NCBI GenBank assembly: GCA_944324135.1
Contig: CALUVE010000020.1
Coordinates: 1-37,692, forward strand
DNA from: Candidatus Gastranaerophilales bacterium
GTDB taxonomy: Bacteria; Cyanobacteriota; Vampirovibrionia; Gastranaerophilales; Gastranaerophilaceae
Direction of reading: 5' to 3'
DNA: 37,692 nt
Below, piece after piece: positions 1,877 through 15,551 of the stretch; the stretch's first letter is position 1, and the number at the start of each line of letters is the position of its first letter. The notes under the pieces are model-generated. The model saw only the letters and a program-made list of their open reading frames with translations, searched no databases and had not been told where the DNA came from. The position numbers and the translations under genes were made by a program.

Positions 1877-4800
1877 ATGAAGAGAACTATCAAGAGTCGC
1901 GTTAGAGAAGAGAAAGTGCTTAGTGATAAAAAAATGAAAGGACGCAGGCTCAGGGCGTTATGTACGGCGGTAATTTTAGGCAGCGTAACGCTGGGTGGTT
2001 TGTCTGCACACGCGGTTGATATTAGTAACCAGAGCGACCTGATAAATCCCGGTAATTATACTGACGGTTCAACTCTTAATATTCTAAATCCTATAAATTT
2101 AACAGATGCTGATTTTAGAGATAGTATCAGCGGTGCTGTAAAAGTTGTTATTGATGGCGGAAATAACAACGATATTACCGGTACAATTTGGGCATCAGAT
2201 CAAGAGTCCGGCGATGATTCTCTCCAAACTGGACATTATACTATTCAGTCCAATGGCTCGGATGTAACATTCCAGAATATGAGCTGGAAAACCAATACAA
2301 CAATTGATAATGATGGCCGTCCTTATTCCGGCAGAAACTGGTCGGTATTCGGCGGTGTTGTTCAAAATATGGCGGAGCTGGGAACTCTTAATATTACAAA
2401 TTCAACGTTTTCTTCATCGCTTAATATTGAGCAGGTTCGCTCCGGTGCGGCTTTTGCACATTCTTATATCAATGGCGGAATAATTGATAATATGGGAACT
2501 GCAAATATTTCTGCTACAAATTTCAACAAGAACGAGATTCATTCGACTTCTGTAAGAGATACGTTATCTACAGCGGCAACGTCTGATGAAGCTATTGCCG
2601 AGGTTAATGGCGGATTAATTAGAAATGCTTATGAAAATAGTACAATGACAATTACAGGCGGTACTATTTCCGATAATACTGTTGCAGCGACAGCAGAAAG
2701 TCAAAGATGGAGTTTGCTTAGTGGTGATAAAATATTTGCTACTATACACGGCGGCATGATATATAATGTCGGCAATCTTGAGATTAAGGGTGTATCAATC
2801 ACAGATAATACTGCCGGTGCGATAGCTAATAATAATGCAGGCCGCGGCGAGAGTGTGGCGAATGCTTATGGCGGTGTGTTCTACAACGAAGGTATCCTGA
2901 CTATCGGAGATGATACAAAGATTAGCGGCAACCAAGTATTTTATACCATGGAAGACAACGGCTCCGCTGAAGCTCTCGGTGGTGCCATATATAATACGGG
3001 AACGTTAAATCTCGGAGACGTAATATTTTCAAATAACCTACATCAGGATGAAGCTCTGAATGATATTTATACAACTGCGAATTCGGTGATTAAAGTGACA
3101 GGCAGAGCTGAAATCGGCAGCGGTCTTCAATCCGCTGACAATTCTGCACAAATTAATATCCAAAACGGCGGTAATCTTGTACTAGTAGGCAAACAAACTC
3201 TTGCTGACGGTACAGAAACAGTCGGAAATAACGCCGGGTATACTGGTGCTCTCAATGTTGCACAGGGCGGTATTTTGACTCTCAAAGGTACTGAAGAAGC
3301 GGACACTCTCGCTGCTGCCCTCACAAAAGCAACTAACAAAAGCTGGGAAGTTGGTTCCGGTTTAGCTTTTGATATTGAAAATGACATAGCGGCACGCCCC
3401 GGACAGGACAACCCTCCTGTAGCGCCTGATGCCACAATTTCTGCAGCTGATATTACAAATATTCTCGGTAGTGATGCTAAAAATGTTGATATTTATAAAC
3501 TTGGCGACAACTATATCACTTTTAGTGATGATTACTCTTCTGTCGGACGCAATGTATATGTAAAAGACGGTACAATGCGCTTTTTCATAGAAAATAATGA
3601 CACTGAGGGCGGCGGTGAAAAATATTTCAACGGAGGTAATGCAAATACTTACATCTCTGACGGCGCGAAGTTCATCTTTGAAATCTCAGGTGAAGAAAAT
3701 GATACTACATTCGCCGGCAATCTCATCAGTGAAGCGGTAGCAGGTGAAAAAGATAAAGCAGAGTTCCAAAAAGCAGGTGATGCAACCCTGACACTTACCG
3801 GTGACAACCGTGCTTTCAACGGAGAGGCTGTTGTTGAATGGGGCGAACTCGTTATTGACGGTAACAAATCTTTCTTTGGTGAAAATGCCAGTATCGTCGT
3901 TGACTGTCAGCGGAATTTTTCCGGTGATACAGGTATGGCAAGCCTTACATACAACAATGTAGCAGGCGGTGAGTTTAATCAGAATATTACACTTAAAAGT
4001 AAGGGGATACTCTCTATCAACGGCGCAGACAGAGGTGATAGCAATGCTATTACCATAAATGATACAATCACCTCAGATGATACAAATAATGTTATCAATT
4101 TTTCCGGTGCTGATTATACGTTGAATACAAATTTGGGTTCAGGACAAAACCTTAATTTTTCAAACGCAGGTATTACTCTCGGCAGCGGGGTTACATCTTT
4201 AGAACATGCAATTACGCTTGCTTCAGGTTCTACTTTGAATCTGGCTGACGGTACTGCTAATAAATATACATTTGGTGATGTAACTCTTAAAGATGCTACT
4301 AATAATGCAACGTTAGATATCAACCTTGACGGAGCTTCTGATGCTATTGCTGTCGGTGGAAATTCAACAGGTGTTCTGAATATCGCTGGTTTGAAGTTTT
4401 CAGGTACAGGCGGCGGTGCTATACAAAAAGAAATAGAAGTTATCACAGGCAGCAATAATTTGACATTTGATGCAAATTATAAAGATACCTATGATTCAGG
4501 CGTTTACGTATATGAGGTTACAACAAATGGCGGCAGCCTTTCTCTTATTGCAAGCGCTATTTCTGCTAACGGTTTGAAATATCAAAACCACTTTGTTGAT
4601 AGAGATAGAACATTTACATTTGTTGGAAATTCTCTGTACACAATCGCAGAAGACTTGGAAAACACTCAGAAAGGCAACTTTACAGTTTCCGGTAAGAATG
4701 AAGACCCAGCAGATAGTCTAATTTCCGGCGGAGACAGCCATTCGTTCTTTGAAGTCAGCACAGATACAACTCTCACTCTTGAAAATTTGACTATTCAAAA

Positions 4801-7800
4801 TGCACTTGCATCAGTGGAGGCTGCCGGTACTGAGGGTGCATCGGCAAATGAAAACGGTGCTGTTGTGAGTGCGACCGGCGGAACAGTAAACCTTAACAAT
4901 GTAGCTTTAAAGGATAACCACGCTGATGGTAACGGCGGCGCGATTTACGCAGCGGGCAACGCTATTATTAAGGGAACATCTGTTAATCTTTCGGGTAACA
5001 CTGCAGACGGTCAGGGCAGCGCAATCTATGCTCAGGAGGGCGCACAAATTACCCTTGAGGATTCGGTTATCGACGGAAGTGATTATGTTATCTACAACAA
5101 TGGCGCTGCAATAACTTTGAATGACACTAGTGTTTCCGGAACTGACAGCAAAATTTACAATAGCGGTACATTGAACATTAATTCAGTTGACAAGAATGTT
5201 ATCACTTCAGCTATTGAAAACGCCGGTACTTTGAATTTAAGCGCTGCTGCTGATAAGGAGCTTTCTATATCAGGCATTACAGGAACGGGTGCTCAAAATG
5301 CCAATAACATCATTAATGTAAACAGTGATGCCTCAAAAACCGGCAGAGTCGAACTCGGTGATGTTTCAAAATCAACACTCGCTGTAGGAAATGGTACTGC
5401 AGAGTTAGGAGCGCTTTCTGATGTTGATTTGAGCATTAATAACGCTGCTGTTGCTGAACATATCAGCGGTAATATTACTGACGGCTCAATTACAATAGCT
5501 CAGAGTGCAATATTAAAAGAACTCGGAGCGGCTGACACTACAATTTCATCTGTGCTCCACGGTTCAGGTACTATCCAAAAGGATGGCGCATCAACACTTA
5601 CTCTTTCCGGAAGCGGCAACGGTGCGGATTTTGCAGGCGATATTAATGTAAACGGCGGAAAACTTGTTTTCAATCAGGCTTACGGCTTGAATGCCGGTTC
5701 TGATGTTAATATCAAGAATGCAGTTGTTGAATATACTACAGCTAATGCAACACTTTCTAATGATACACTTGCAAATATCAACCTCAACGGTGATGCTCAA
5801 TTTACGGTTGACGCGAACGGAGCCACTGTTACTATTGCTGACAAGTTCTGGACTGCTAAAGATGAAACAACTAATAACAATCTGAATTTCAACGACGGTG
5901 CGTACAACCTCGGGTTCAGCACTGCAGGGCTTGCTGATGTTTTGAACTTTACGGATGCAAATATCACGCTTTCTCAAGCTGCTAACGGCTCTATCACGAT
6001 GAATAATTCAACACTTGACTTGTCAAACAGACATGACGGTGATAATTACACATTTGACAATCTCAATGCAACTCAAGGTCCAAATAACATCTCTCTTGAT
6101 TTGGATTTGTATGTTACTCAGGATAGAAACCCTATCGCTGACACAATCAATGCAACAGAAGGCGTGGGAATCCTTAATCTGACAAAAGTGTTTATCACAA
6201 ACGATAACGGTCAGATTTTCAGATTTGAAGATAAAAATAAAATTCAGGTTATATCTGGTAATAATGATTTAAAAATTGCAACAGCTGATGATATGGAGCT
6301 TTTGAGCTGGGCAACTAACGTATATAAATACCAGATTAACTCAGCAATGGAACAAAAAGGTATTGAAATCAGCTACGGCGGACCATCTTCAACCGATACA
6401 CTGCGTGACCTTAATATTTATAACAGCGGCGAACAAGGTATGAACAACCGCGGCTTCAACTTTGTTATTGATGACAAAAGCAACAGCTACAATATTTACC
6501 GTGATTTGGATACAACAACAGAGGGCAACTTCACGATTATCGGCGCTGTTAATGGTAACGGTTCAAAAAGTGTTCTGTCCGGAGAGTTGAAAGATTTGGT
6601 GTTGGATGCTGGTACTGTTGCAAACAGACTTGATTATAATGAAGATAATAATAAATACACTTACAAAAATGCTGACGGTTCACCTGACAGAACATTTGAT
6701 GCTTCTTTCGTAACTGATACTGCGGATGGCGGCAAAATTATCAAGGTTGAGGCTATGTCAGACGGTGATACAAACGGTTCGTTCTTTGAACTAACTAATG
6801 CTACAAACCTTGAAATTTCTGATGTTATAATCAAAGATGCCTATCGCGGCGCAGGCGAGCTCGATGCAAACCGCTTTACTAAATACGGTTCTGTGATCTA
6901 TGCAATGAATAAGGATGCTGTAGTCAACCTTTCTAATGTTGATTTCGTAAGCAACAATTCAGCAGCAAACGGCGGTGCTATAGGTAACGTATTCAGCAAA
7001 GAATTTAATATCACAAATGGCAGCTTTGATGACAACCATTCTGAAAAAGGACTCGGCGGTGCGATTTACACTGCTTTCAATATGAATATTAAAGATACAG
7101 ACTTCGGTGTAAATGGACTGAATACTCATCAGGCTGGTGAGGCTAACGACATTTATATCGCAGGTAATACAGTTACATTTGAAGTATCTGATAAAAATAC
7201 AAATACTATTAATAGCGGTATTGCAGGTGTAGCCGGAACTGTATTTGACAAAACAGGCGCCGGAACTCTCTTTCTCAACGGAAACAACGAGGATATGCTT
7301 GGGTCTCTTAAGATTTCCGCAGGTGAGGTTAAGTATACAGCAGACGGCAGTGAAGATTCATTCATAGGCGGCTCTACAGAAATTAATATTGACAGCAAAC
7401 TTACTATGGATATCGCGAATTCTGCCGATATTCAAGGCCAGATTATCAATAATTTATCAGGTAATGGTCAATTGGTTAAAACCAATAACGGCACTCTCAA
7501 TATGACCGGAGATAATCATTTGTTTACAGGTACAATGGCTATTGATGGCGGTAGCGTTGATTTTACATACGAAGCAGGTAAAAATATTTATATCGCAGGT
7601 CTTACTGATATTGGCGAAAATGGCATTCTGAATTATTCAACAGATTCAGAAATCACACTTTCCAACGTTAGCGGCACAGGTCTTTTGAACAAAAACGGCT
7701 CAGGTAATTTGAATTTCAATTATATGACAGATAACGGTGGAAAATTCAACGGTACTGCCTACGCAAACGAGGGAACTTTGACCGTTAATGCTTATCCGGA

Positions 7801-10800
7801 TGCAGCTGATGATAACGCATTTGATTTTAAAATGGTTGCAAACGGCGGCGACATTGTATATAACGCAGTAGCCGGACAAACTTACACTCTTGACAGTAAG
7901 TCAAACATTTCGTTCTCAGGCAATAACAATACTATAACTTTCAATAACGGTATTTACAACCTGAACGGCAGTATCAACGGATTAAATGATACAAATACTA
8001 TCGCTTTCAGCGGTTCTGTTGATACTCCGGCTCAATTAATTCTCGGACAAAATAAATACGATACTGGTATTTACAGTATCATTGGCAATACGATTATTGA
8101 TTTGCAAAAATCTGATAATAATACATTTAATACCTATGAGTTTTCTAATTTGAATATCGCAGACGGTGCAAATGCAGAGTTAAAAGTAGATTTGGAATTT
8201 AATTCAACCGCAGAAGGCACAATTCAAAATTCTGATGTGCTTGTTTCAAATGGCACAGGCGGTGTGATTTCTGTTACTGACCTTAATTTGAGCAAAGTGT
8301 ATGACTGCGGATTGAACAACCCGATTGAATTTGCAATACTCGGCGGTAACTTAAAACTGGATGAAAACGTAACACCGACTTCATGGGCTACAGATGTTTA
8401 TAATTATAATATTTCGGTCGGCGAAAGCGGACAATCTATTATCTTGGAGGCTGTTTATGCAGCTGATGAAAATTCCCTCCGTGCTCAAAATATACATAAC
8501 GGTCAGGAAGGTACAAGAGGCTTCAGTTTTCAAAGCCAGCAGAAGGACCTTTATGTAATCGGAGATCACCTCGGAGAAACCGCAGGCGGCACTTTCACTG
8601 TCAGCGGGAAAAATGACGGAAATAATAATATAATTTCACACATTTCCGGTGATACTGATAATGATGGCTCAGGCGATTATTCAATGTTTGACCTTCAGAA
8701 TAAAACTGATTTACGTCTGAATGACCTTGAGATTTCTCACGCCGCAACGGACGAAAACGGCTCTGTTATTAACCACCAGAATAGCGAGGCTGTTTCTACT
8801 ATTTCAAACGCATATATCCACGACAACACTTCCGGTGATAAAGGCGGTGCGATTTATGCTAACGGACAGATGAACCTGACAGATGTAAAATTTGAAAACA
8901 ATGCCCACGCTGACGGTGCTAATGATATTTATATTGACCAAAATGCCACTGTAAATTATAACGCCGCATCTGCGGATAAAAACTCTATCTCAAGCGGTAT
9001 CGCAGGCAATGGAACGTTGTATAAAACCGGCGAAAATGAACTGAAACTTTCAGGTAACAATGAAAACTTCACCGGTAATCTCGTTGTATCAAACGGTACT
9101 TTGAACTTTGACCAAAATTCCGGAAATGACACTTATATCAAAGGTACAACAACAATCGCTGACGCTGCTAATGTTGTTATCAATACTGATTTAGAAGAGA
9201 TTACAACAGGCGCATTTGCCGGCGGTGCAAGTTCAACAATCACAAAAACAGGTGATTATGATATTACGCTCTCAGGCGACAATTCACAGTTCAAAGGTAC
9301 TGCAAATATTAATGCCGGTAATGTCATCTGGAATACCGATGATGCAACATTCTTCGGCGGCAAAACAAATCTTGCAAAAGAAGAATACGGTATTGTTATC
9401 GAAGGTACTAAAGACGCCCAATTATCAAATATTTCAGGTGTAGGTACAGTAGGTAAAGATAATTCCGGTACACTTGTTCTCTCAGGAGACAACTCAGACT
9501 TCCACGGCAGTCTTGCTGTTAATCAGGGGACTCTGGCAATCGCTGCAGGCACTCAATTAGGTAATCTTAATACCGGTGCTTTCGGTAACGGTACTTCTAT
9601 CAATCTACAAAATACTGCCGCTGTCGAAAACGAGGATGGTAGCTGGACTACTAATCCAAATCCGGCAAGTATCGAGAACCTTAACTTTGAAACACTGGAA
9701 ATTGACGGTGATGTCAGCCTATACTTGGATGTTGATTTAGCAAAAGAACAAGCTGATAAAATCTCCGCAGATAATGTTACAGTTAATAACAACGGACATC
9801 TTGTAATCGGTCCTGACGGTATCAACCTTGTAAGTGATGCACTTGTTAAAAATGTTTCTACCCAGATTGTTTCCGGTAATATAGCTCAGTATGTAATGCT
9901 TGACGATGCAGCCAGAACTGCTATGGGTCCTATTCAGAAATATATGGTTGATTATGCAAACGGTTACTTGAGTTTTGCGGCTCAGGGCGGCAATACTCCA
10001 TCTTACGGCGACGTCAACCCGGGTATTATGGCATCTCCTGTGGCTGCCCAACTCGGCGGATATCTTGTCCAGTTGCATTCTTACGATGAAGCTTTCCGCA
10101 ATATGGATATGTATATGCTGATGACAAAAGAACAGCGTCAGGCTATGAAAATGAAAAACCAAATTGCATCAGCCGCTAAAAATTCTAATATAGTATTAGA
10201 CCCGACTGTATCACGTTATGAAAATAAATCTGGCTGGTTCAGACCGTATGCAACTTTTGAAAATGTTTCACTTGATAACGGGCCAAAAGTTTCTAACGTA
10301 GCTTACGGTTCATTCTTCGGTGCTGAATCCGAAATGTATGACCTCGGTCACGGATGGGACGGTATCTGGAGTGTTTATGGCGGTTACAACGGTTCGCATC
10401 AGGCTTATGACGGCGTTGGTATCTACCAGAACGGCGGTACTCTCGGTATTGTCGGTATGGCTTATAAAGGTAACTTCTTTACAGGTTTGACAGCAAATAC
10501 CGGAGCAAGTGTCGGCGAGGCTCAAACAGGCTTTGGTCAGGATAACTTCACTATGTTGATGGCAGGTATCGCATCTAAATCAGGTTACAATGTTGAATTT
10601 GCTAAAGGTAAATTAATTATCCAGCCAAACTTCACAATGTCTTATTCTTATGTAAATACATTTGATTACCACAGTGCTGCAGGTGTTTCAATCAGTTCTG
10701 ATCCGCTGCATGCCATTCACCTTGAACCGGGAATTAAGGTTATAGGCAACCTGAAAAACGGATGGCAGCCTTATGGCAGCGTAAGTATGATTTGGAACAT

Positions 10801-11062
10801 AATGGATAACACACAATTTATGGCAAATCAGGTTTATCTCCCTGAATTAAGTGTCAAACCGTTTGTAAAATACGGTGTCGGTGTAAGAAAATCATGGGGT
10901 GAAAAATTCACCGGATTCTTCCAGACATACATCACAAACGGCGGCAGAAACGGTGTGGGCTTGCAGTTAGGTTTCCGCTGGATGCTCGGCGACAAATCTT
11001 CAAGTAAAAAGACAACCAGCCAGACCCCGCAAAATAAAAAAGTGATTAAATCAATGAAATAA
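1877..11062 (+). CDS. Giant Pmp/PATR-type autotransporter adhesin (3061 aa)
   Basis: This is a predicted type Va-secreted surface protein. A long, basic signal region ends in a hydrophobic stretch and a likely cut after SAHA (about residue 46). The passenger (about 47-2700) is Asn/Gly/Thr-rich beta-helix. Chlamydial-Pmp-like motifs (GGAIY with FSNN, FDDN or FENN) occur near residues 370, 1018, 1696 and 2335. About eight PATR-like strands (pattern GxGtLxKxGxgtLxLsGxN) lie near residues 630, 1230, 1790, 1862, 1933, 2377, 2452 and 2520. A module of about 600-690 residues occurs three times, starting near residues 759, 1356 and 2042, with a partial fourth copy before the barrel. A helical linker (about 2710-2785) leads to an autotransporter barrel (about 2786-3038) ending in GFRWMLG. 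Unusually, a 23-residue Lys/Ser/Thr-rich tail follows the last strand. The passenger shows no obvious catalytic motif; adhesion or host contact is inference. Confidence 0.88.
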   Translation: MKRTIKSRVREEKVLSDKKMKGRRLRALCTAVILGSVTLGGLSAHAVDISNQSDLINPGNYTDGSTLNILNPINLTDADFRDSISGAVKVVIDGGNNNDITGTIWASDQESGDDSLQTGHYTIQSNGSDVTFQNMSWKTNTTIDNDGRPYSGRNWSVFGGVVQNMAELGTLNITNSTFSSSLNIEQVRSGAAFAHSYINGGIIDNMGTANISATNFNKNEIHSTSVRDTLSTAATSDEAIAEVNGGLIRNAYENSTMTITGGTISDNTVAATAESQRWSLLSGDKIFATIHGGMIYNVGNLEIKGVSITDNTAGAIANNNAGRGESVANAYGGVFYNEGILTIGDDTKISGNQVFYTMEDNGSAEALGGAIYNTGTLNLGDVIFSNNLHQDEALNDIYTTANSVIKVTGRAEIGSGLQSADNSAQINIQNGGNLVLVGKQTLADGTETVGNNAGYTGALNVAQGGILTLKGTEEADTLAAALTKATNKSWEVGSGLAFDIENDIAARPGQDNPPVAPDATISAADITNILGSDAKNVDIYKLGDNYITFSDDYSSVGRNVYVKDGTMRFFIENNDTEGGGEKYFNGGNANTYISDGAKFIFEISGEENDTTFAGNLISEAVAGEKDKAEFQKAGDATLTLTGDNRAFNGEAVVEWGELVIDGNKSFFGENASIVVDCQRNFSGDTGMASLTYNNVAGGEFNQNITLKSKGILSINGADRGDSNAITINDTITSDDTNNVINFSGADYTLNTNLGSGQNLNFSNAGITLGSGVTSLEHAITLASGSTLNLADGTANKYTFGDVTLKDATNNATLDINLDGASDAIAVGGNSTGVLNIAGLKFSGTGGGAIQKEIEVITGSNNLTFDANYKDTYDSGVYVYEVTTNGGSLSLIASAISANGLKYQNHFVDRDRTFTFVGNSLYTIAEDLENTQKGNFTVSGKNEDPADSLISGGDSHSFFEVSTDTTLTLENLTIQNALASVEAAGTEGASANENGAVVSATGGTVNLNNVALKDNHADGNGGAIYAAGNAIIKGTSVNLSGNTADGQGSAIYAQEGAQITLEDSVIDGSDYVIYNNGAAITLNDTSVSGTDSKIYNSGTLNINSVDKNVITSAIENAGTLNLSAAADKELSISGITGTGAQNANNIINVNSDASKTGRVELGDVSKSTLAVGNGTAELGALSDVDLSINNAAVAEHISGNITDGSITIAQSAILKELGAADTTISSVLHGSGTIQKDGASTLTLSGSGNGADFAGDINVNGGKLVFNQAYGLNAGSDVNIKNAVVEYTTANATLSNDTLANINLNGDAQFTVDANGATVTIADKFWTAKDETTNNNLNFNDGAYNLGFSTAGLADVLNFTDANITLSQAANGSITMNNSTLDLSNRHDGDNYTFDNLNATQGPNNISLDLDLYVTQDRNPIADTINATEGVGILNLTKVFITNDNGQIFRFEDKNKIQVISGNNDLKIATADDMELLSWATNVYKYQINSAMEQKGIEISYGGPSSTDTLRDLNIYNSGEQGMNNRGFNFVIDDKSNSYNIYRDLDTTTEGNFTIIGAVNGNGSKSVLSGELKDLVLDAGTVANRLDYNEDNNKYTYKNADGSPDRTFDASFVTDTADGGKIIKVEAMSDGDTNGSFFELTNATNLEISDVIIKDAYRGAGELDANRFTKYGSVIYAMNKDAVVNLSNVDFVSNNSAANGGAIGNVFSKEFNITNGSFDDNHSEKGLGGAIYTAFNMNIKDTDFGVNGLNTHQAGEANDIYIAGNTVTFEVSDKNTNTINSGIAGVAGTVFDKTGAGTLFLNGNNEDMLGSLKISAGEVKYTADGSEDSFIGGSTEINIDSKLTMDIANSADIQGQIINNLSGNGQLVKTNNGTLNMTGDNHLFTGTMAIDGGSVDFTYEAGKNIYIAGLTDIGENGILNYSTDSEITLSNVSGTGLLNKNGSGNLNFNYMTDNGGKFNGTAYANEGTLTVNAYPDAADDNAFDFKMVANGGDIVYNAVAGQTYTLDSKSNISFSGNNNTITFNNGIYNLNGSINGLNDTNTIAFSGSVDTPAQLILGQNKYDTGIYSIIGNTIIDLQKSDNNTFNTYEFSNLNIADGANAELKVDLEFNSTAEGTIQNSDVLVSNGTGGVISVTDLNLSKVYDCGLNNPIEFAILGGNLKLDENVTPTSWATDVYNYNISVGESGQSIILEAVYAADENSLRAQNIHNGQEGTRGFSFQSQQKDLYVIGDHLGETAGGTFTVSGKNDGNNNIISHISGDTDNDGSGDYSMFDLQNKTDLRLNDLEISHAATDENGSVINHQNSEAVSTISNAYIHDNTSGDKGGAIYANGQMNLTDVKFENNAHADGANDIYIDQNATVNYNAASADKNSISSGIAGNGTLYKTGENELKLSGNNENFTGNLVVSNGTLNFDQNSGNDTYIKGTTTIADAANVVINTDLEEITTGAFAGGASSTITKTGDYDITLSGDNSQFKGTANINAGNVIWNTDDATFFGGKTNLAKEEYGIVIEGTKDAQLSNISGVGTVGKDNSGTLVLSGDNSDFHGSLAVNQGTLAIAAGTQLGNLNTGAFGNGTSINLQNTAAVENEDGSWTTNPNPASIENLNFETLEIDGDVSLYLDVDLAKEQADKISADNVTVNNNGHLVIGPDGINLVSDALVKNVSTQIVSGNIAQYVMLDDAARTAMGPIQKYMVDYANGYLSFAAQGGNTPSYGDVNPGIMASPVAAQLGGYLVQLHSYDEAFRNMDMYMLMTKEQRQAMKMKNQIASAAKNSNIVLDPTVSRYENKSGWFRPYATFENVSLDNGPKVSNVAYGSFFGAESEMYDLGHGWDGIWSVYGGYNGSHQAYDGVGIYQNGGTLGIVGMAYKGNFFTGLTANTGASVGEAQTGFGQDNFTMLMAGIASKSGYNVEFAKGKLIIQPNFTMSYSYVNTFDYHSAAGVSISSDPLHAIHLEPGIKVIGNLKNGWQPYGSVSMIWNIMDNTQFMANQVYLPELSVKPFVKYGVGVRKSWGEKFTGFFQTYITNGGRNGVGLQLGFRWMLGDKSSSKKTTSQTPQNKKVIKSMK
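4150..9990 (+). repeat. Triplicated coding module within the autotransporter
   Basis: Three coding modules begin near 4150, 5941 and 7999. Each runs in the same order: an LNF..ITL strand, a YTF..L..DL block, a VISGNN-like segment, a (T)WATxVYxY-like strand, a short LRxxN..G..RGFxF box, a GNFTVSGKN-like strand, an SFFEL/LENLTI strand, Pmp-like GGAI units and PATR strands. A fourth, partial copy (NFETLEIDGDVSLYLDVD) precedes the barrel near 9680-9990. The copies are diverged at protein level, so the duplications are old. Confidence 0.7.
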
Positions 11063-11268: not shown

Positions 11269-11289
11269 GAGCCGGGTAGGCTCTTTTTT
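11269..11289 (+). terminator. Terminator after tRNA-Lys
   Basis: The hairpin GAGCC-gggta-GGCTC is followed directly by six T residues: a short intrinsic terminator about 26 nt past the tRNA. Confidence 0.8.
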
Positions 11290-11347: not shown

Positions 11348-13384
11348 ATGTTATGTATGAAAGTATTACCGGTATATTTAAATTTTACAAATCACCCCGC
11401 TGTATATAATACTCCGGCCCGTAAGAATATAGCTGCTGCAAATGACAGTACCAATACAACTATTCTGCCGGCTTTTTACTATCAGCCGGTTAGTTTTAGC
11501 GGTAAAGAAGAAAAGAAAGAAGCTTTGGTTAATGACTTAAAAGCTTTGAAAAATCTGCATTGCCCGTATTGCGGAACCAAAATGTTTTCTTCTGACGAAT
11601 TTCAGGCGGCGCAGGATAATGTTGAGAAAATAACTACTGTTAATGATTTGTTTAAATACCTTGATAAATATGAAGAGTATATAAATCCGCGATTTAAAAA
11701 TATTGTTGCCGAAGTAAAACGTGCAGGATATGCAAATTACAGCCGCACTCCGGATGATGTTCTCACTGTCTGTAAAACGAATATGCAGCAAAAAACAGAG
11801 TATGTTTATAAATCTATGCTCGTAAATCTTGATGATATTATAAATAACGGTAATCTTGATGAGCACGATAAAACTATTCTCTCTGATTTTAGAGACGAAG
11901 CTGCTACAATTAATGATTATGTTCCTAAACGGGTTGGAATTTATAGAGAGTTTTCAAAAACTTTGAAAAATTGTGTTTCGGAAATGTATTCGCGCGAAAA
12001 AAATCAAATTTATCAGCGGTTAAATAGTCCGGTGAGAGACGTGTTTGTTGATGAAAATTTGTTTTCTCAGCCGTATGGAGAAGAGACTTCCTTAACTAAA
12101 ATTTTTCTGAGAAATCTACTCCGGTATTCAAGGTCTGATATCCACAATGTAAGCGAAAAAGCTCCTGATGGTATTGATAATATTATGCTTAGCTGTAAAC
12201 ATTGTTATGTTACCGGCAAAGGGCTTCATAGCAAAGATCTAAAAAGACAGAATTATTACAACCACATATATGAATTATGCGGTGCCGCTCTCGCCGGTGA
12301 TTTACACGAAAATCGTTCTTACCCTATACTTTTGCAAAACAATGTTATAAAAAATTATAACAACAGATTTGTGCCGGATAACTTTCAGCCCGATTTGCGT
12401 GCTCTTTTGAAAACAACCGGTATAAAACCTCCAAAATATGTTACTTTCCCTCTCACGGACGTTCCGGGTATCTGCTGTGCTTCCTGCGGGCAAAAAACAA
12501 TTACTCACGACCAAAAAGCCAAAATCTTTACTGAAATTAATGATGCAGAAACTATGCCGGATTTGTTGGGCGTTCTTCATAAATATCATGATGTTATAAA
12601 ACCGAAATATAATATTTTAATTCAGGAATTTGAAAATAATCTCCACAGACACAGTTTTGATACTGAATCTAATATGGTTAAACTGTTGAAAGTTTTTGTG
12701 TATAAAAATTTGCAGGATACTCTCACGGAAAATATGAGAAAAGTGGAAGATATTACGGATAACTATAATCTTCAGCCGTCTGAGTCCGCTGCTGTTCGCA
12801 AATTTATCTCAAAAGCAAATGCAATATCGCTTAATATGAATCCCGATACTGTATTTCCGCTGGATGATTATCATGATATTCTCTCTGAGCTTGTCGGAAA
12901 ACTCAGCCGTAACGCGCGCCGTGAAATTTGGGAAGCGTGTTATCAGAATATTGTTGAAGACTACTCCCGCCAGATAGTTCTTATTCCGCCGGAATCTCTT
13001 TCTTATAAAGGTAAATCAGATTTGAAAGTAATGGCTGAGTATATTTTTACGCATTCACAGGCAACGGTCGATCATCTTGATCCAAAGTATAAATATAATG
13101 CGGAGCGCAAAAATAATAACAGAAAAGGATTCCCTGAAAATAAAAATCAAAATCTTGTTGTTATGTGTAAGGATTGTAATAACAGTAAAAGTTCAACAGA
13201 ACTCCGCCGCTGGGTTCAGAAACATCCGGAAATGATTAGGAATATGGAAAAATACATCATGCAGGTTAAACAATTGCGTAAGGATAGAATTATCGGGCAA
13301 AAATTTGAATTTTATCCGTACGAAGTGGCAGCACAGTTTACGCGTTTGACAGGCATTGATTTATCAACAACCGGAAGTAAATAA
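11348..13384 (+). CDS. Internally duplicated CxxC / HNH-like protein (678 aa)
   Basis: The function is not recognised beyond an HNH-like fold. The C-terminal third has D575-H576 (VDHLDPKY), then NLVVMCKDCNNSK with C607, C610, N611/N612 and K614: the order of an HNH (beta-beta-alpha metal) nuclease domain with its structural Zn pair. An upstream half has the same architecture: HCPYCG (C72, C75), a helical KYEEYINPRF block, then H266 (SDIHNVSEK) and NIMLSCKHC (C283, C286). The second half repeats it as CASCG (C377, C380) and KYHDVIKPKY before the HNH. The first HNH copy has lost the Asn/Lys end (YVTGKG), so it is probably inactive. The N-terminal ~55 residues are low-complexity and end in PVSFSG. 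No classical signal peptide is seen. The ATG at 11357 (MKVLPVY) is an equally likely start; neither has a clear ribosome site. The next gene begins 3 nt after its stop. Confidence 0.75.
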   Translation: MLCMKVLPVYLNFTNHPAVYNTPARKNIAAANDSTNTTILPAFYYQPVSFSGKEEKKEALVNDLKALKNLHCPYCGTKMFSSDEFQAAQDNVEKITTVNDLFKYLDKYEEYINPRFKNIVAEVKRAGYANYSRTPDDVLTVCKTNMQQKTEYVYKSMLVNLDDIINNGNLDEHDKTILSDFRDEAATINDYVPKRVGIYREFSKTLKNCVSEMYSREKNQIYQRLNSPVRDVFVDENLFSQPYGEETSLTKIFLRNLLRYSRSDIHNVSEKAPDGIDNIMLSCKHCYVTGKGLHSKDLKRQNYYNHIYELCGAALAGDLHENRSYPILLQNNVIKNYNNRFVPDNFQPDLRALLKTTGIKPPKYVTFPLTDVPGICCASCGQKTITHDQKAKIFTEINDAETMPDLLGVLHKYHDVIKPKYNILIQEFENNLHRHSFDTESNMVKLLKVFVYKNLQDTLTENMRKVEDITDNYNLQPSESAAVRKFISKANAISLNMNPDTVFPLDDYHDILSELVGKLSRNARREIWEACYQNIVEDYSRQIVLIPPESLSYKGKSDLKVMAEYIFTHSQATVDHLDPKYKYNAERKNNNRKGFPENKNQNLVVMCKDCNNSKSSTELRRWVQKHPEMIRNMEKYIMQVKQLRKDRIIGQKFEFYPYEVAAQFTRLTGIDLSTTGSK

Positions 13385-13387
13385 TTT

Positions 13388-14275
13388 ATGAAAGTAAATG
13401 ATACAACTAAAAAAATTGCAATAAGTACAGCTATCGCCGGAAGTTTCGGAGTACTATACGGCGGTGTCCGAAGTGTGTCAAAATCAATGGGCAAACTGGA
13501 AAAAGAATTTATGAAAAACATCAAGCCCGAGTATTTTTCTTATCTTAATTCTGATGAAATTCTTTCTGTACAGAAACTTTTGAATAAAGGTTTGTCAACG
13601 GAAGAACTTAATATGTTTTCCCGTATCTGGAAAATCCCTGATAAAAAACAGTTTCTCAAAGAAGCTCTTGATATTTATTTGGACGGTACAGGTTATGAAC
13701 ATATTAAACCTGGTTTAACTTTTGAAAATTCACAGAATGACGGTGGCTGGTTGTGGAGTAATTTTAATATTAATATTTCTAATGTCGAAAATTATTCTAA
13801 AGTAAGAATCCTATCAGTCCTCAGGCATGAGATTGAACATTACAAACAATTTGTTACGATGTTGAGAACTGAGGGTATCGGTACGGATGAAATATTTGAT
13901 TTTGAAATGAAAGACATGTTCAACAAGGCAAAAAAATCAGATCACTTTAAAGACATGAGTGATGAAGAAATAAAAAATTTGTTGAACTTCCATTATGGTC
14001 AGCTTAAAGAGATATTTTACTTACGGCAGCAGATTGCAGAATTATCTTTCGGCAAAATTCCGGCAAATTCTCCTGAAGGGCAAAAAGCGCGTGATTATTT
14101 TGAGGCAAACAAAAATTATGTGCGAGTTAACATTTTCTCAAGCGATGAGGATGTGGCAAAATACGAGGGGAATCTCCTTGAAAAAGAAGCGTTTGCGGTC
14201 GGTGGTGATACTGCTGAAAAATACAGAAAGTTTATATTAGCGCTTATTGAAAATAAAAAATCTAATCTTCAGTAA
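13388..14275 (+). CDS. HExxH putative zinc-metallopeptidase-like protein (295 aa)
   Basis: The motif RHEIEHYKQF (H147, E148, H151) on a predicted helix is a classic HExxH zinc site. EKEAFAVG near E265/E267 could supply the third ligand, as in gluzincin-type proteases, which often have an ExxA motif downstream. The N-terminus has a weakly hydrophobic stretch (IAISTAIAGSFGVLYGG, about residues 10-26) that may be a membrane anchor. The gene starts 3 nt after the HNH-like gene's stop, so the two are almost surely cotranscribed. Its 3' end overlaps the convergent gene by 14 bp. I cannot assign a named peptidase family; a non-catalytic zinc protein is possible. Confidence 0.65.
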   Translation: MKVNDTTKKIAISTAIAGSFGVLYGGVRSVSKSMGKLEKEFMKNIKPEYFSYLNSDEILSVQKLLNKGLSTEELNMFSRIWKIPDKKQFLKEALDIYLDGTGYEHIKPGLTFENSQNDGGWLWSNFNINISNVENYSKVRILSVLRHEIEHYKQFVTMLRTEGIGTDEIFDFEMKDMFNKAKKSDHFKDMSDEEIKNLLNFHYGQLKEIFYLRQQIAELSFGKIPANSPEGQKARDYFEANKNYVRVNIFSSDEDVAKYEGNLLEKEAFAVGGDTAEKYRKFILALIENKKSNLQ

Positions 14276-15551
14276 GATATTCAACCATTTTTTTTGCGAA
14301 CGGATGTTCTTCCTCCATACTTGATATTTTTATATACCGGAGGTGTTTATTATAATTTTCTTCGGTCGGGTTTTCCTTGTAGAGTTTGAATCGTGAAAGT
14401 ATATTTTCAGCCTCTTGCACGGTAATTACTTCTGTATCTTTAGCTTTTGTATATATTTCAATTGATTTATCAACAATTTCTATAGTTGGTTTGTCAAATC
14501 CGATTTTTCTTTCGTTTGCATAAAGTTCATTATAGAGATTTAAAAGGTTAGATGTCTTTTCGTCTAAAGCTAGTTTTTCTTTATTTTTTGTGAGCACCTC
14601 AAATAGTTGTTTTGTCGATAAATATTTGATGTTTGTAATAGTTCCGAAAAATTGCTGTTTTCTTCCGCTTTCCAATGATAAGTTTAAGTAATAGTCAAAA
14701 CTCTTTGGCATATCGTAAATATCTCGCGGAAAATAAATTTCAAACCATTCACAGCAGTCTTCAGGATTATTAACTTCTGTTATACTTTTCATTATTGTAT
14801 GGAATGCGTCATCACTGTATTCGCAATTTTTGTTTCTGAATATCTCGAGAACTTTTTCGTAATTTTTTTCTTTGCCTTGAAGTATGATTTCCGTATTTAT
14901 AAAATATTTTTTGACCCATTTCTGGTCAAATCTATCATCGGCTCTTTTGAGCAGATTAAATGCTTTTTCTTTGTTCTGTGTGTTGTAGTAAGCCTTTGCC
15001 ATTTCTGCTATCATTGACGGTTCGTTGACTTCAATAGAGCGACCTTTTTGGAAAATTTCTTCCATGTATCGCTCCATAAGCTCGACATAGGTTTTATCAT
15101 CAATTTCGTTGCGGTATTCGCGTTTGAAAGTAAGAACTCTGCTCAGGTTTGTAAGAGCCTTTCCATCTGCCAGTCTGTGAGCTTTGATAATCTCTTCAGT
15201 ATTATCGTTGTAAAATTTGGAAGCGATTTCATTTCCGTATTTATCATTTATGACTTCTCTCGCCTGCTGGAGGGTATCATCTACCAGATTTTCAAGAGGT
15301 TTGTAGACCGGAACTTCAGGTTTTTTGAAGAGTTTTCTGGCAATAAATCCGCGGCCTGCAAATATCATTATTCCGCTGAGCGTGATAATGCCGGCTGTGG
15401 CAAGCTGTTTTTTTTCTGTTTTGGAAAAGTTGAAATTTTCGGTAGTTTTTTTCTCAGATTGAATTTCCGGCTGTTTTTTGGCAGGTTGTTCCGGTGCTGT
15501 ATATAATGTTGGTTTAGAAAATTGTGAAAATATTTTATTAGTGACTGGCAT
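14262..15551 (-). CDS. Membrane-anchored helical-repeat (TPR/PPR-like) protein (429 aa)
   Basis: The protein is unassigned. The first ~45 residues are polar (Pro/Lys/Gln/Thr-rich). One transmembrane segment follows at about 48-70 (TAGIITLSGIMIFAGRG). The remaining ~350 residues are predicted helix pairs resembling tetratricopeptide or pentatricopeptide repeats, for example KAYYNTQNKEKAFNLLKRA and KNYEKVLEIFRNKNCEYS. The short N-terminal segment KPTLYTAPEQPAKK recalls HPAVYNTPARKN in the 678-residue protein of the same cluster. It is convergent with, and overlaps by 14 bp, the HExxH gene. A scaffold or interaction role is inference. Confidence 0.7.
   Translation of the reverse strand: MPVTNKIFSQFSKPTLYTAPEQPAKKQPEIQSEKKTTENFNFSKTEKKQLATAGIITLSGIMIFAGRGFIARKLFKKPEVPVYKPLENLVDDTLQQAREVINDKYGNEIASKFYNDNTEEIIKAHRLADGKALTNLSRVLTFKREYRNEIDDKTYVELMERYMEEIFQKGRSIEVNEPSMIAEMAKAYYNTQNKEKAFNLLKRADDRFDQKWVKKYFINTEIILQGKEKNYEKVLEIFRNKNCEYSDDAFHTIMKSITEVNNPEDCCEWFEIYFPRDIYDMPKSFDYYLNLSLESGRKQQFFGTITNIKYLSTKQLFEVLTKNKEKLALDEKTSNLLNLYNELYANERKIGFDKPTIEIVDKSIEIYTKAKDTEVITVQEAENILSRFKLYKENPTEENYNKHLRYIKISSMEEEHPFAKKMVEYLTED

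What the first reader, a model, noticed from the sequence alone, without database searches (positions are those of the whole stretch)
11348..15551. Unassigned HNH-like / HExxH / membrane helical-repeat cassette
An internally duplicated CxxC-HNH protein, an HExxH protein 3 nt downstream and a convergent membrane protein with TPR/PPR-like repeats form a compact cluster between a tRNA gene and glycosyltransferases. A nuclease-like fold paired with a metallopeptidase-like fold beside a tRNA recalls defence or effector islands, but no known system matches. This is the best candidate here for a novel functional unit.
Basis: partly seen in the sequence, partly recalled or inferred. Interest (0 to 1): 0.62.

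Follow-up and report, generated by a model that had tools for sequence, protein, structure and literature searches.

The report
Lineage-specific double HNH protein with protease
In gut bacteria of the Gastranaerophilales this stretch carries a fast-changing protein made of two fused nuclease-type modules (only one with a working-looking active site), followed by a membrane-anchored protease-like gene and a helical membrane protein; the trio is kept only within one genus and does not look like a defence system, but the double module is, as far as searched, an undescribed, lineage-confined design.

Summary
The sequence observation is right; the interpretation as one novel defence- or effector-like unit is mostly not. 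Protein A (11348-13384+) is a genuine internal duplication (profile-profile E 2.5e-36). Each half is a zinc-type HNH module whose CxxC knuckle is separated from the beta-beta-alpha core by a ~190-residue helical insert. Only the C-terminal copy keeps D575/H576; the N copy lacks them in all 31 relatives aligned. N halves and C halves form separate clades: one ancient fusion, then loss of catalysis. The family is confined to one family of Candidatus Gastranaerophilales (plus one order-mate), sits at a fixed housekeeping locus in many genera, and also exists as single modules and tandem gene pairs. B (13388-14275+) is a gluzincin-type metallopeptidase (H147, E148, H151, E265 invariant in 22 relatives), probably membrane-anchored. 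C (14262-15551-) is a fast-evolving single-pass membrane protein, helical repeats likely. The trio is fixed in 4 of 4 genomes of the genus, absent elsewhere; B-C alone recur in a second genus; A and B are not associated across genomes. No defence-system match. A's disordered tail carries a bipartite signature (MKIxP...[SN]FxG) shared by unrelated proteins, a possible sorting signal. Biochemical function unproven.

The parts
11348..13384 (+). Protein A: asymmetric double-HNH protein (678 aa). The translation start may be the ATG at 11357 (MKVLPV...), where most relatives begin
11348..11503 (+). A residues 1-52: disordered N-terminal tail with conserved ends (MKVLP ... PVSFSG) and a hypervariable middle
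   Evidence: pLDDT about 35 for residues 1-52; column counts: K5 22/30, I/V6 31/31, P8 17/31, P47 20/29, F50 22/31, G52 20/31
11525..12442 (+). A residues 60-365: N-terminal HNH-type module, zinc cysteines C72/C75 and C283/C286, no catalytic DH
12443..13372 (+). A residues 366-675: C-terminal HNH module, zinc cysteines C377/C380 and C607/C610, helical insert between them
13070..13075 (+). D575-H576, putative catalytic pair of the C-terminal HNH module (N602 at 13151-13153)
   Evidence: 27 of 31 aligned relatives keep DH
13388..14275 (+). Protein B: gluzincin-type metallopeptidase (295 aa), probably membrane-anchored
13826..13840 (+). HEIEH (H147-H151), zinc-binding and catalytic motif of B
   Evidence: invariant H147, E148, H151, Q154 in 22 homologues
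14162..14191 (+). YEGNLLEKEA of B; E265 is the candidate third zinc ligand
   Evidence: E265 and A268 invariant, Y259 at least 90%
14262..15551 (-). Protein C: single-pass membrane protein with a probable helical-repeat domain (429 aa); overlaps B tail-to-tail at 14262-14275
15339..15395 (-). C residues 53-71, transmembrane-like helix AGIITLSGIMIFAGRGFIA
   Evidence: mean hydropathy 1.66 over 19 residues
11169..11243 (+). tRNA-Lys(ctt), a neighbour and not part of the unit; same position upstream of A in 4 of 4 genus genomes
11269..11289 (+). Intrinsic-terminator-like hairpin after the tRNA (GAGCCGGGTAGGCTCTTTTTT), separating tRNA and A transcription

Best explanation
A is a single-chain tandem of two zinc-type HNH modules that arose by one ancient duplication and fusion in the ancestor of a Gastranaerophilales family. 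The C-terminal module keeps the full HNH site (D575, H576, N602, zinc cysteines) and most likely cuts nucleic acid with a metal ion. The N-terminal module lost the catalytic pair and most likely serves as a zinc-held, helix-rich partner domain that binds substrate or packs against the active half, like a dead subunit of a dimer. The disordered tail with conserved ends probably directs the protein to a particular place (membrane, envelope or outside). B, probably co-transcribed with A, is a membrane-anchored gluzincin-type peptidase (E148 catalytic; H147, H151, E265 holding zinc). C is a membrane-anchored helical-repeat protein that may present substrates to B, since B and C stay together in a second genus without A. 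Shown by computation: duplication, module homology, residue conservation, predicted folds, distribution, vertical synteny, faster divergence than flanking genes. Inferred: nuclease activity, role of the dead module, role of the tail, A-B co-transcription, B-C partnership.
For: Duplication: hhalign E 2.5e-36. Module tree: 33/33 N halves monophyletic (support 0.999), 33/33 C halves (0.936), 18/18 single modules (0.948). Seven of the eight zinc-site cysteines are kept in every one of 31 aligned relatives, the eighth (C607) being His in three; DH of the C half in 27 of 31, DH of the N half in none. HNH Pfam hits in 27 of 31 members, best E 2.1e-8; solved HNH proteins by sequence profile: Csn1/Cas9 8d2k E 3.3e-8, HNH endonuclease 4h9d E 2.4e-6. 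AF2 model of A pLDDT 82; residues 363-670 align with Cas9 HNH domains (7mpz Z 6.3, 102 residues, 3.5 A; 5vgb Z 6.1). B: invariant HExxHxxQ and E265, AF2 pLDDT 86.5, profile hit to minigluzincin/selecase MJ1213 E 4e-4, top fold matches nearly all HExxH gluzincins (PprI/IrrE, a DPC-repair protease, ACE, selecase; Z 5-6). B-C convergent pair with tail overlap in genus g20 without A beside it. Vertical synteny of long A next to an aquaporin / PgeF-like cluster in 15 loci.
Against: No activity has been measured. Fold matches of both models are modest (Z 5-6; Foldseek E above 0.04). Genus g6 orthologues lost D575/H576 but kept the cysteines (L043-L046), so nuclease chemistry is dispensable in part of the family. 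C homologues stay in the genus apart from short ones in g20 and one 57-residue hit in G020. A-B linkage exists only in one genus, so a joint function is not demonstrated.
Confidence: 0.5

Rival explanations
1. A is an exported effector: the disordered tail with conserved ends is a secretion signal, and the nuclease acts on neighbouring bacteria or on host cells; B or C assist maturation or export.
For: Tail disordered with two conserved ends in distant relatives; the same kind of tail occurs on unrelated proteins of the genome (16 of 366 vs 3.6 expected by shuffling); A, B and C diverge much faster than flanking genes (49-68% vs 86-91% identity); paralogue expansion in some genera (up to 8 hits in G021).
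Against: No Sec/Tat-type signal visible, no secretion-system gene beside it in this window, no conserved immunity-like neighbour as antibacterial nuclease toxins usually have (inference), single-copy and fixed at a housekeeping locus in many genera.
Confidence: 0.22
2. A is a zinc-stabilised structural or regulatory protein; the HNH site is vestigial and there is no nuclease activity.
For: N module dead in all 31 relatives aligned; DH lost in the C module of genus g6 while the cysteines remain.
Against: 27 of 31 keep the D-H and K pattern despite as little as 15% overall identity, and single-module paralogues keep an [ED]H...C-x-x-C pattern. That is hard to explain without catalysis; g6 also keeps a second copy with DH intact (L048).
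Confidence: 0.15
3. The cassette is an anti-phage defence or abortive-infection system (nuclease plus protease plus sensor) inserted at a tRNA gene.
For: Nuclease-type and protease-type genes adjacent, beside a tRNA; fast divergence. Weak HNH hit to PtuB of Septu (17.2 bits).
Against: PADLOC hits cover little more than the HNH core; present in 4 of 4 genus genomes rather than patchy; vertical synteny elsewhere; no phage copy; A and B unassociated across genomes.
Confidence: 0.08

Closest known systems
HNH endonuclease superfamily (Pfam PF01844 / HNH_5), zinc-finger type; Cas9/IscB HNH and Geobacter HNH (4h9d) as nearest solved relatives
   Same: beta-beta-alpha core with DH, N and CxxCN-x-x-K; two CxxC pairs for zinc; fold aligns with Cas9 HNH domains
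   Different: About 190-residue helical insert between the first CxxC and the core; two modules fused with the first catalytically dead; disordered tail; no RNA-guided parts
Gluzincins, in particular minigluzincins (selecase/jannalysin) and the PprI/IrrE and Wss1/SPRTN-like group
   Same: HExxH helix plus downstream Glu ligand; compact catalytic domain; profile and fold matches
   Different: N-terminal membrane-like segment and long extra helices; HExxHxxQ ... NxLExEA signature; the window protein reaches no Pfam cut-off
TPR / LapB-type membrane-anchored helical-repeat proteins
   Same: Single N-terminal membrane helix then probable helical repeats
   Different: Only sub-threshold sequence similarity; genus-restricted
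PtuB (Septu defence HNH)
   Same: Shares the short HNH core
   Different: No PtuA-type ATPase neighbour seen, different architecture, vertical inheritance

Membership tests
HNH endonucleases (PF01844) | HNH core motif [DE]H ... N ... (C-x-x-C)-N-x-x-K | tested here: met
   C module: D575 H576 N602 C607 C610 N611 K614; DH in 27/31 relatives
HNH endonucleases (PF01844) | Profile score above the curated cut-off | tested here: met
   21.5 vs cut-off 21.4 bits for the window protein, where the best stretch lies in the N half; 27 of 31 homologues match, best E 2.1e-8
HNH endonucleases (PF01844) | beta-beta-alpha-metal fold | tested here: met
   AF2 model: strands 571-576 and 603-607, helix 608-614; aligns with Cas9 HNH domains at Z about 6; modest score
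HNH endonucleases (PF01844) | Nucleic-acid cleavage | not testable with these tools
   needs biochemistry
Gluzincin metallopeptidases | HExxH plus downstream Glu zinc ligand | tested here: met
   H147, E148, H151, E265 invariant in 22 homologues
Gluzincin metallopeptidases | Zincin catalytic fold | tested here: met
   AF2 pLDDT 86.5, pTM 0.80; top matches nearly all gluzincins, Z 5-6, modest; profile E 4e-4 to selecase
Gluzincin metallopeptidases | Proteolysis | not testable with these tools
   needs biochemistry
TPR/PPR repeat proteins (protein C) | Repeated 34/35-residue helix-turn-helix units recognised by profile | tested here: inconclusive
Known anti-phage defence systems (PADLOC) | Full-length match to a system's proteins with the required partners | tested here: not met
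   Only short partial hits at or below 17.2 bits for A; none for B or C
Conserved three-gene system (A-B-C) | Co-occurrence beyond close relatives | tested here: not met
   Trio only in 4 genomes of one genus; C in 3 of 41 genera at E<=1e-4; A-B association p = 0.79

The most novel reading that the evidence does not exclude
The tail of A belongs to an undescribed lineage-wide sorting signal of Gastranaerophilales: a short start block (M-[KRQ]-[IV]-x-P-[IV]-N), a disordered spacer, and an end block ([VIL]-[SNT]-F-x-[GA]) carried by a few percent of the proteome (nuclease-type, kinase-like, ankyrin-like and other proteins), delivering proteins by a so far unknown route; A is then a targeted pseudo-dimeric HNH enzyme.
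Probability: 0.25. Interest if true: 0.75.

Novelty: new variant of a known kind. Interest (0 to 1): 0.42.

Why it matters
It shows a lineage-confined way to build an HNH protein: a fused pair with one dead and one live site, each split by a large helical insert. That gives a natural test of what a catalytically dead HNH module does. If the tail signature is a sorting signal, it would open the exported or localised proteome of a common but little-studied group of gut bacteria.

Tried and rejected
(1) Defence system: PADLOC, phage records and synteny do not support it. (2) Integration at the tRNA: a pattern search found no copy in the window, but the pattern typed was not the exact 3' end of this tRNA, so that search is void as a test; the stable position in 4 of 4 genomes is what argues against a recent insertion. 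(3) A-B functional pairing across the family: no association. (4) De novo k-mer search for the tail motif in all proteins: diluted by housekeeping proteins, no clear winner; the first regex test was positive on non-A clusters (p = 2.7e-4) but not significant in G009 alone (p = 0.11). (7) Four-helix-bundle matches of the insert (pectin methylesterase inhibitor, Z about 10) are read as a common helical arrangement, not kinship. (8) The Mistic hit of C (E 0.0032) is below the curated cut-off and was not followed.

Full report
What is there. The window is one whole contig (G000:C20) of a 1.82-Mb genome. Its genus mates at the same locus are titled Candidatus Gastranaerophilales MAGs. Downstream of tRNA-Lys lie A (678 aa) and, 3 nt later, B (295 aa); C (429 aa) converges on B with a 14-nt tail overlap; then come glycosyltransferase-type genes. 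All four genomes of the genus hold tRNA-Lys, A, B and C in this order. A terminator-like hairpin directly after the tRNA suggests that A is transcribed separately.

Protein A. The two halves are homologous (hhalign probability 99.9, E 2.5e-36, 287 columns). Each half holds a CxxC, about 190 residues of helices, and a beta-beta-alpha unit with a second CxxC. In 31 diverse long relatives (down to 15% identity to the window protein) seven of the eight cysteines are invariant and the eighth (C607) is His in three; the catalytic D575-H576 of the C half is present in 27 and absent in the four genus-g6 orthologues; the N half never has it. A tree of 84 modules separates N halves, C halves and single modules into three clean groups, so the fusion and the loss in the N half happened once, early. 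Single-module relatives of 350-480 aa occur alone or as tandem gene pairs, and some carry long C-terminal extensions. The window's genome has one such single-module paralogue (475 aa, L102:2856-4283-). AlphaFold gives pLDDT 82 with residues 1-52 disordered. The C half, skipping the insert, aligns with Cas9 HNH domains at Z about 6, and sequence profiles reach Cas9/Csn1 and a Geobacter HNH protein. HNH membership is therefore supported; activity is inferred.

Distribution. With the loose single-sequence search 90 of 146 genomes of the family had an A-like match. In 292 genomes of the phylum, 110 matched at E <= 1e-10: every one listed belongs to this family except one order-mate, G285. No phage record matched. 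In 15 long-form loci of other genera A lies beside a conserved cluster (aquaporin-like, PgeF/YfiH-like and two other genes), which points to vertical inheritance at a fixed place; the gene names there come from reading the sequences, not from a family scan. In this genus it sits by tRNA-Lys. A, B and C are 49-68% identical among genus mates, while the two flanking glycosyltransferase-type genes are 86-91% identical in the same comparisons.

Protein B. Twenty-two homologues (16-67% identity) share H147, E148, H151, Q154, E265 and A268. AlphaFold gives pLDDT 86.5 and pTM 0.80. The best sequence-profile match among solved structures is the minigluzincin selecase MJ1213 (E 4e-4); the best fold matches are nearly all HExxH gluzincins (Z 5-6); some homologues hit putative metallopeptidase families such as DUF6782. 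Residues 9-28 look like a weak membrane segment, modelled at low confidence. B-type proteins occur in 18 of 41 genera at E <= 1e-4, in two cases within predicted proteins of 2269 and 2713 aa.

Protein C. Genus-restricted, except for short versions (about 221 aa) in genus g20 that again converge on a B gene with a tail overlap and no A beside them, and one 57-residue hit in G020. The simplest reading is that B-C is the older pair and A was added in this genus. TPR-like repeats are plausible but only sub-threshold.

Tail signature. The A tail has conserved ends (MKIxP and [SN]FxG) and a hypervariable middle. Similar tails appear on unrelated proteins. A pattern chosen after inspection matched 16 of 366 proteins in a sample of the window's genome against 3.6 +/- 1.9 in composition-preserving shuffles (maximum 11 in 500 runs), and 9 of 360 against 3.3 in a second genus, where the best of 500 shuffles also reached 9. 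Because the pattern was post hoc, part of the hits are chance, and one earlier test was not significant, this is a lead only. Papers found on Gastranaerophilales report flagellar genes in part of the group (PMC5877343, PMC4451040); the searches run found no description of this protein family or tail.

Verdict. Real, conserved within its lineage, and structurally unusual; not a demonstrated system, and not defence-like. Most likely: a lineage-specific single-chain pseudo-dimeric HNH enzyme, possibly targeted by its tail, placed in this genus next to an independent membrane protease and helical-repeat pair.

Noticed in passing
L083-L102 (own genome sample), e.g. L085:6947-7939+, L087:818-1456+, L099:10535-12679-, L100:2210-3424-; L172-L173 of genus g7: Unrelated proteins share an N-terminal tail like that of A: a short MK[IV]xPIN-type start, a low-complexity spacer and an [SNTA]FxG-type block; some then have a Gly/Ala-rich membrane helix. 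Possible lineage-wide sorting signal.
   Followed up: partly
L072-L077 and L080: Single-module relatives of A lie as tandem gene pairs; in genus g26 (L076, L077, L080) the upstream partner has lost the second CxxC but keeps EH.
   Followed up: partly
L043:7249-9279+, L044:6654-8690-, L045:7655-9688+, L046:7342-9381+: In genus g6 this A copy lost the catalytic DH but kept all cysteines, while a second copy in the same genome (L048, from G045) keeps DH.
   Followed up: yes
L151:3794-11935+ and L152:4616-11425+: B-like HExxH domain match inside predicted giant proteins of 2713 and 2269 aa.
   Followed up: no
L137:5823-7331 and L138:6551-8059: Convergent, tail-overlapping B-C pair in genus g20 without an adjacent A; next to it a ~445-aa protein starting MRVDSFNLAKPSFKGYDARK / MRITPHTTTTISFKGYDARK.
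   Followed up: partly
window 1877-11062+: A 3061-aa autotransporter-like protein with PATR repeats (PF12951, E 8.3e-18) lies directly upstream of the tRNA; large ORFs resembling it lie in the same place in L014 and L016 but not in L015.
   Followed up: no
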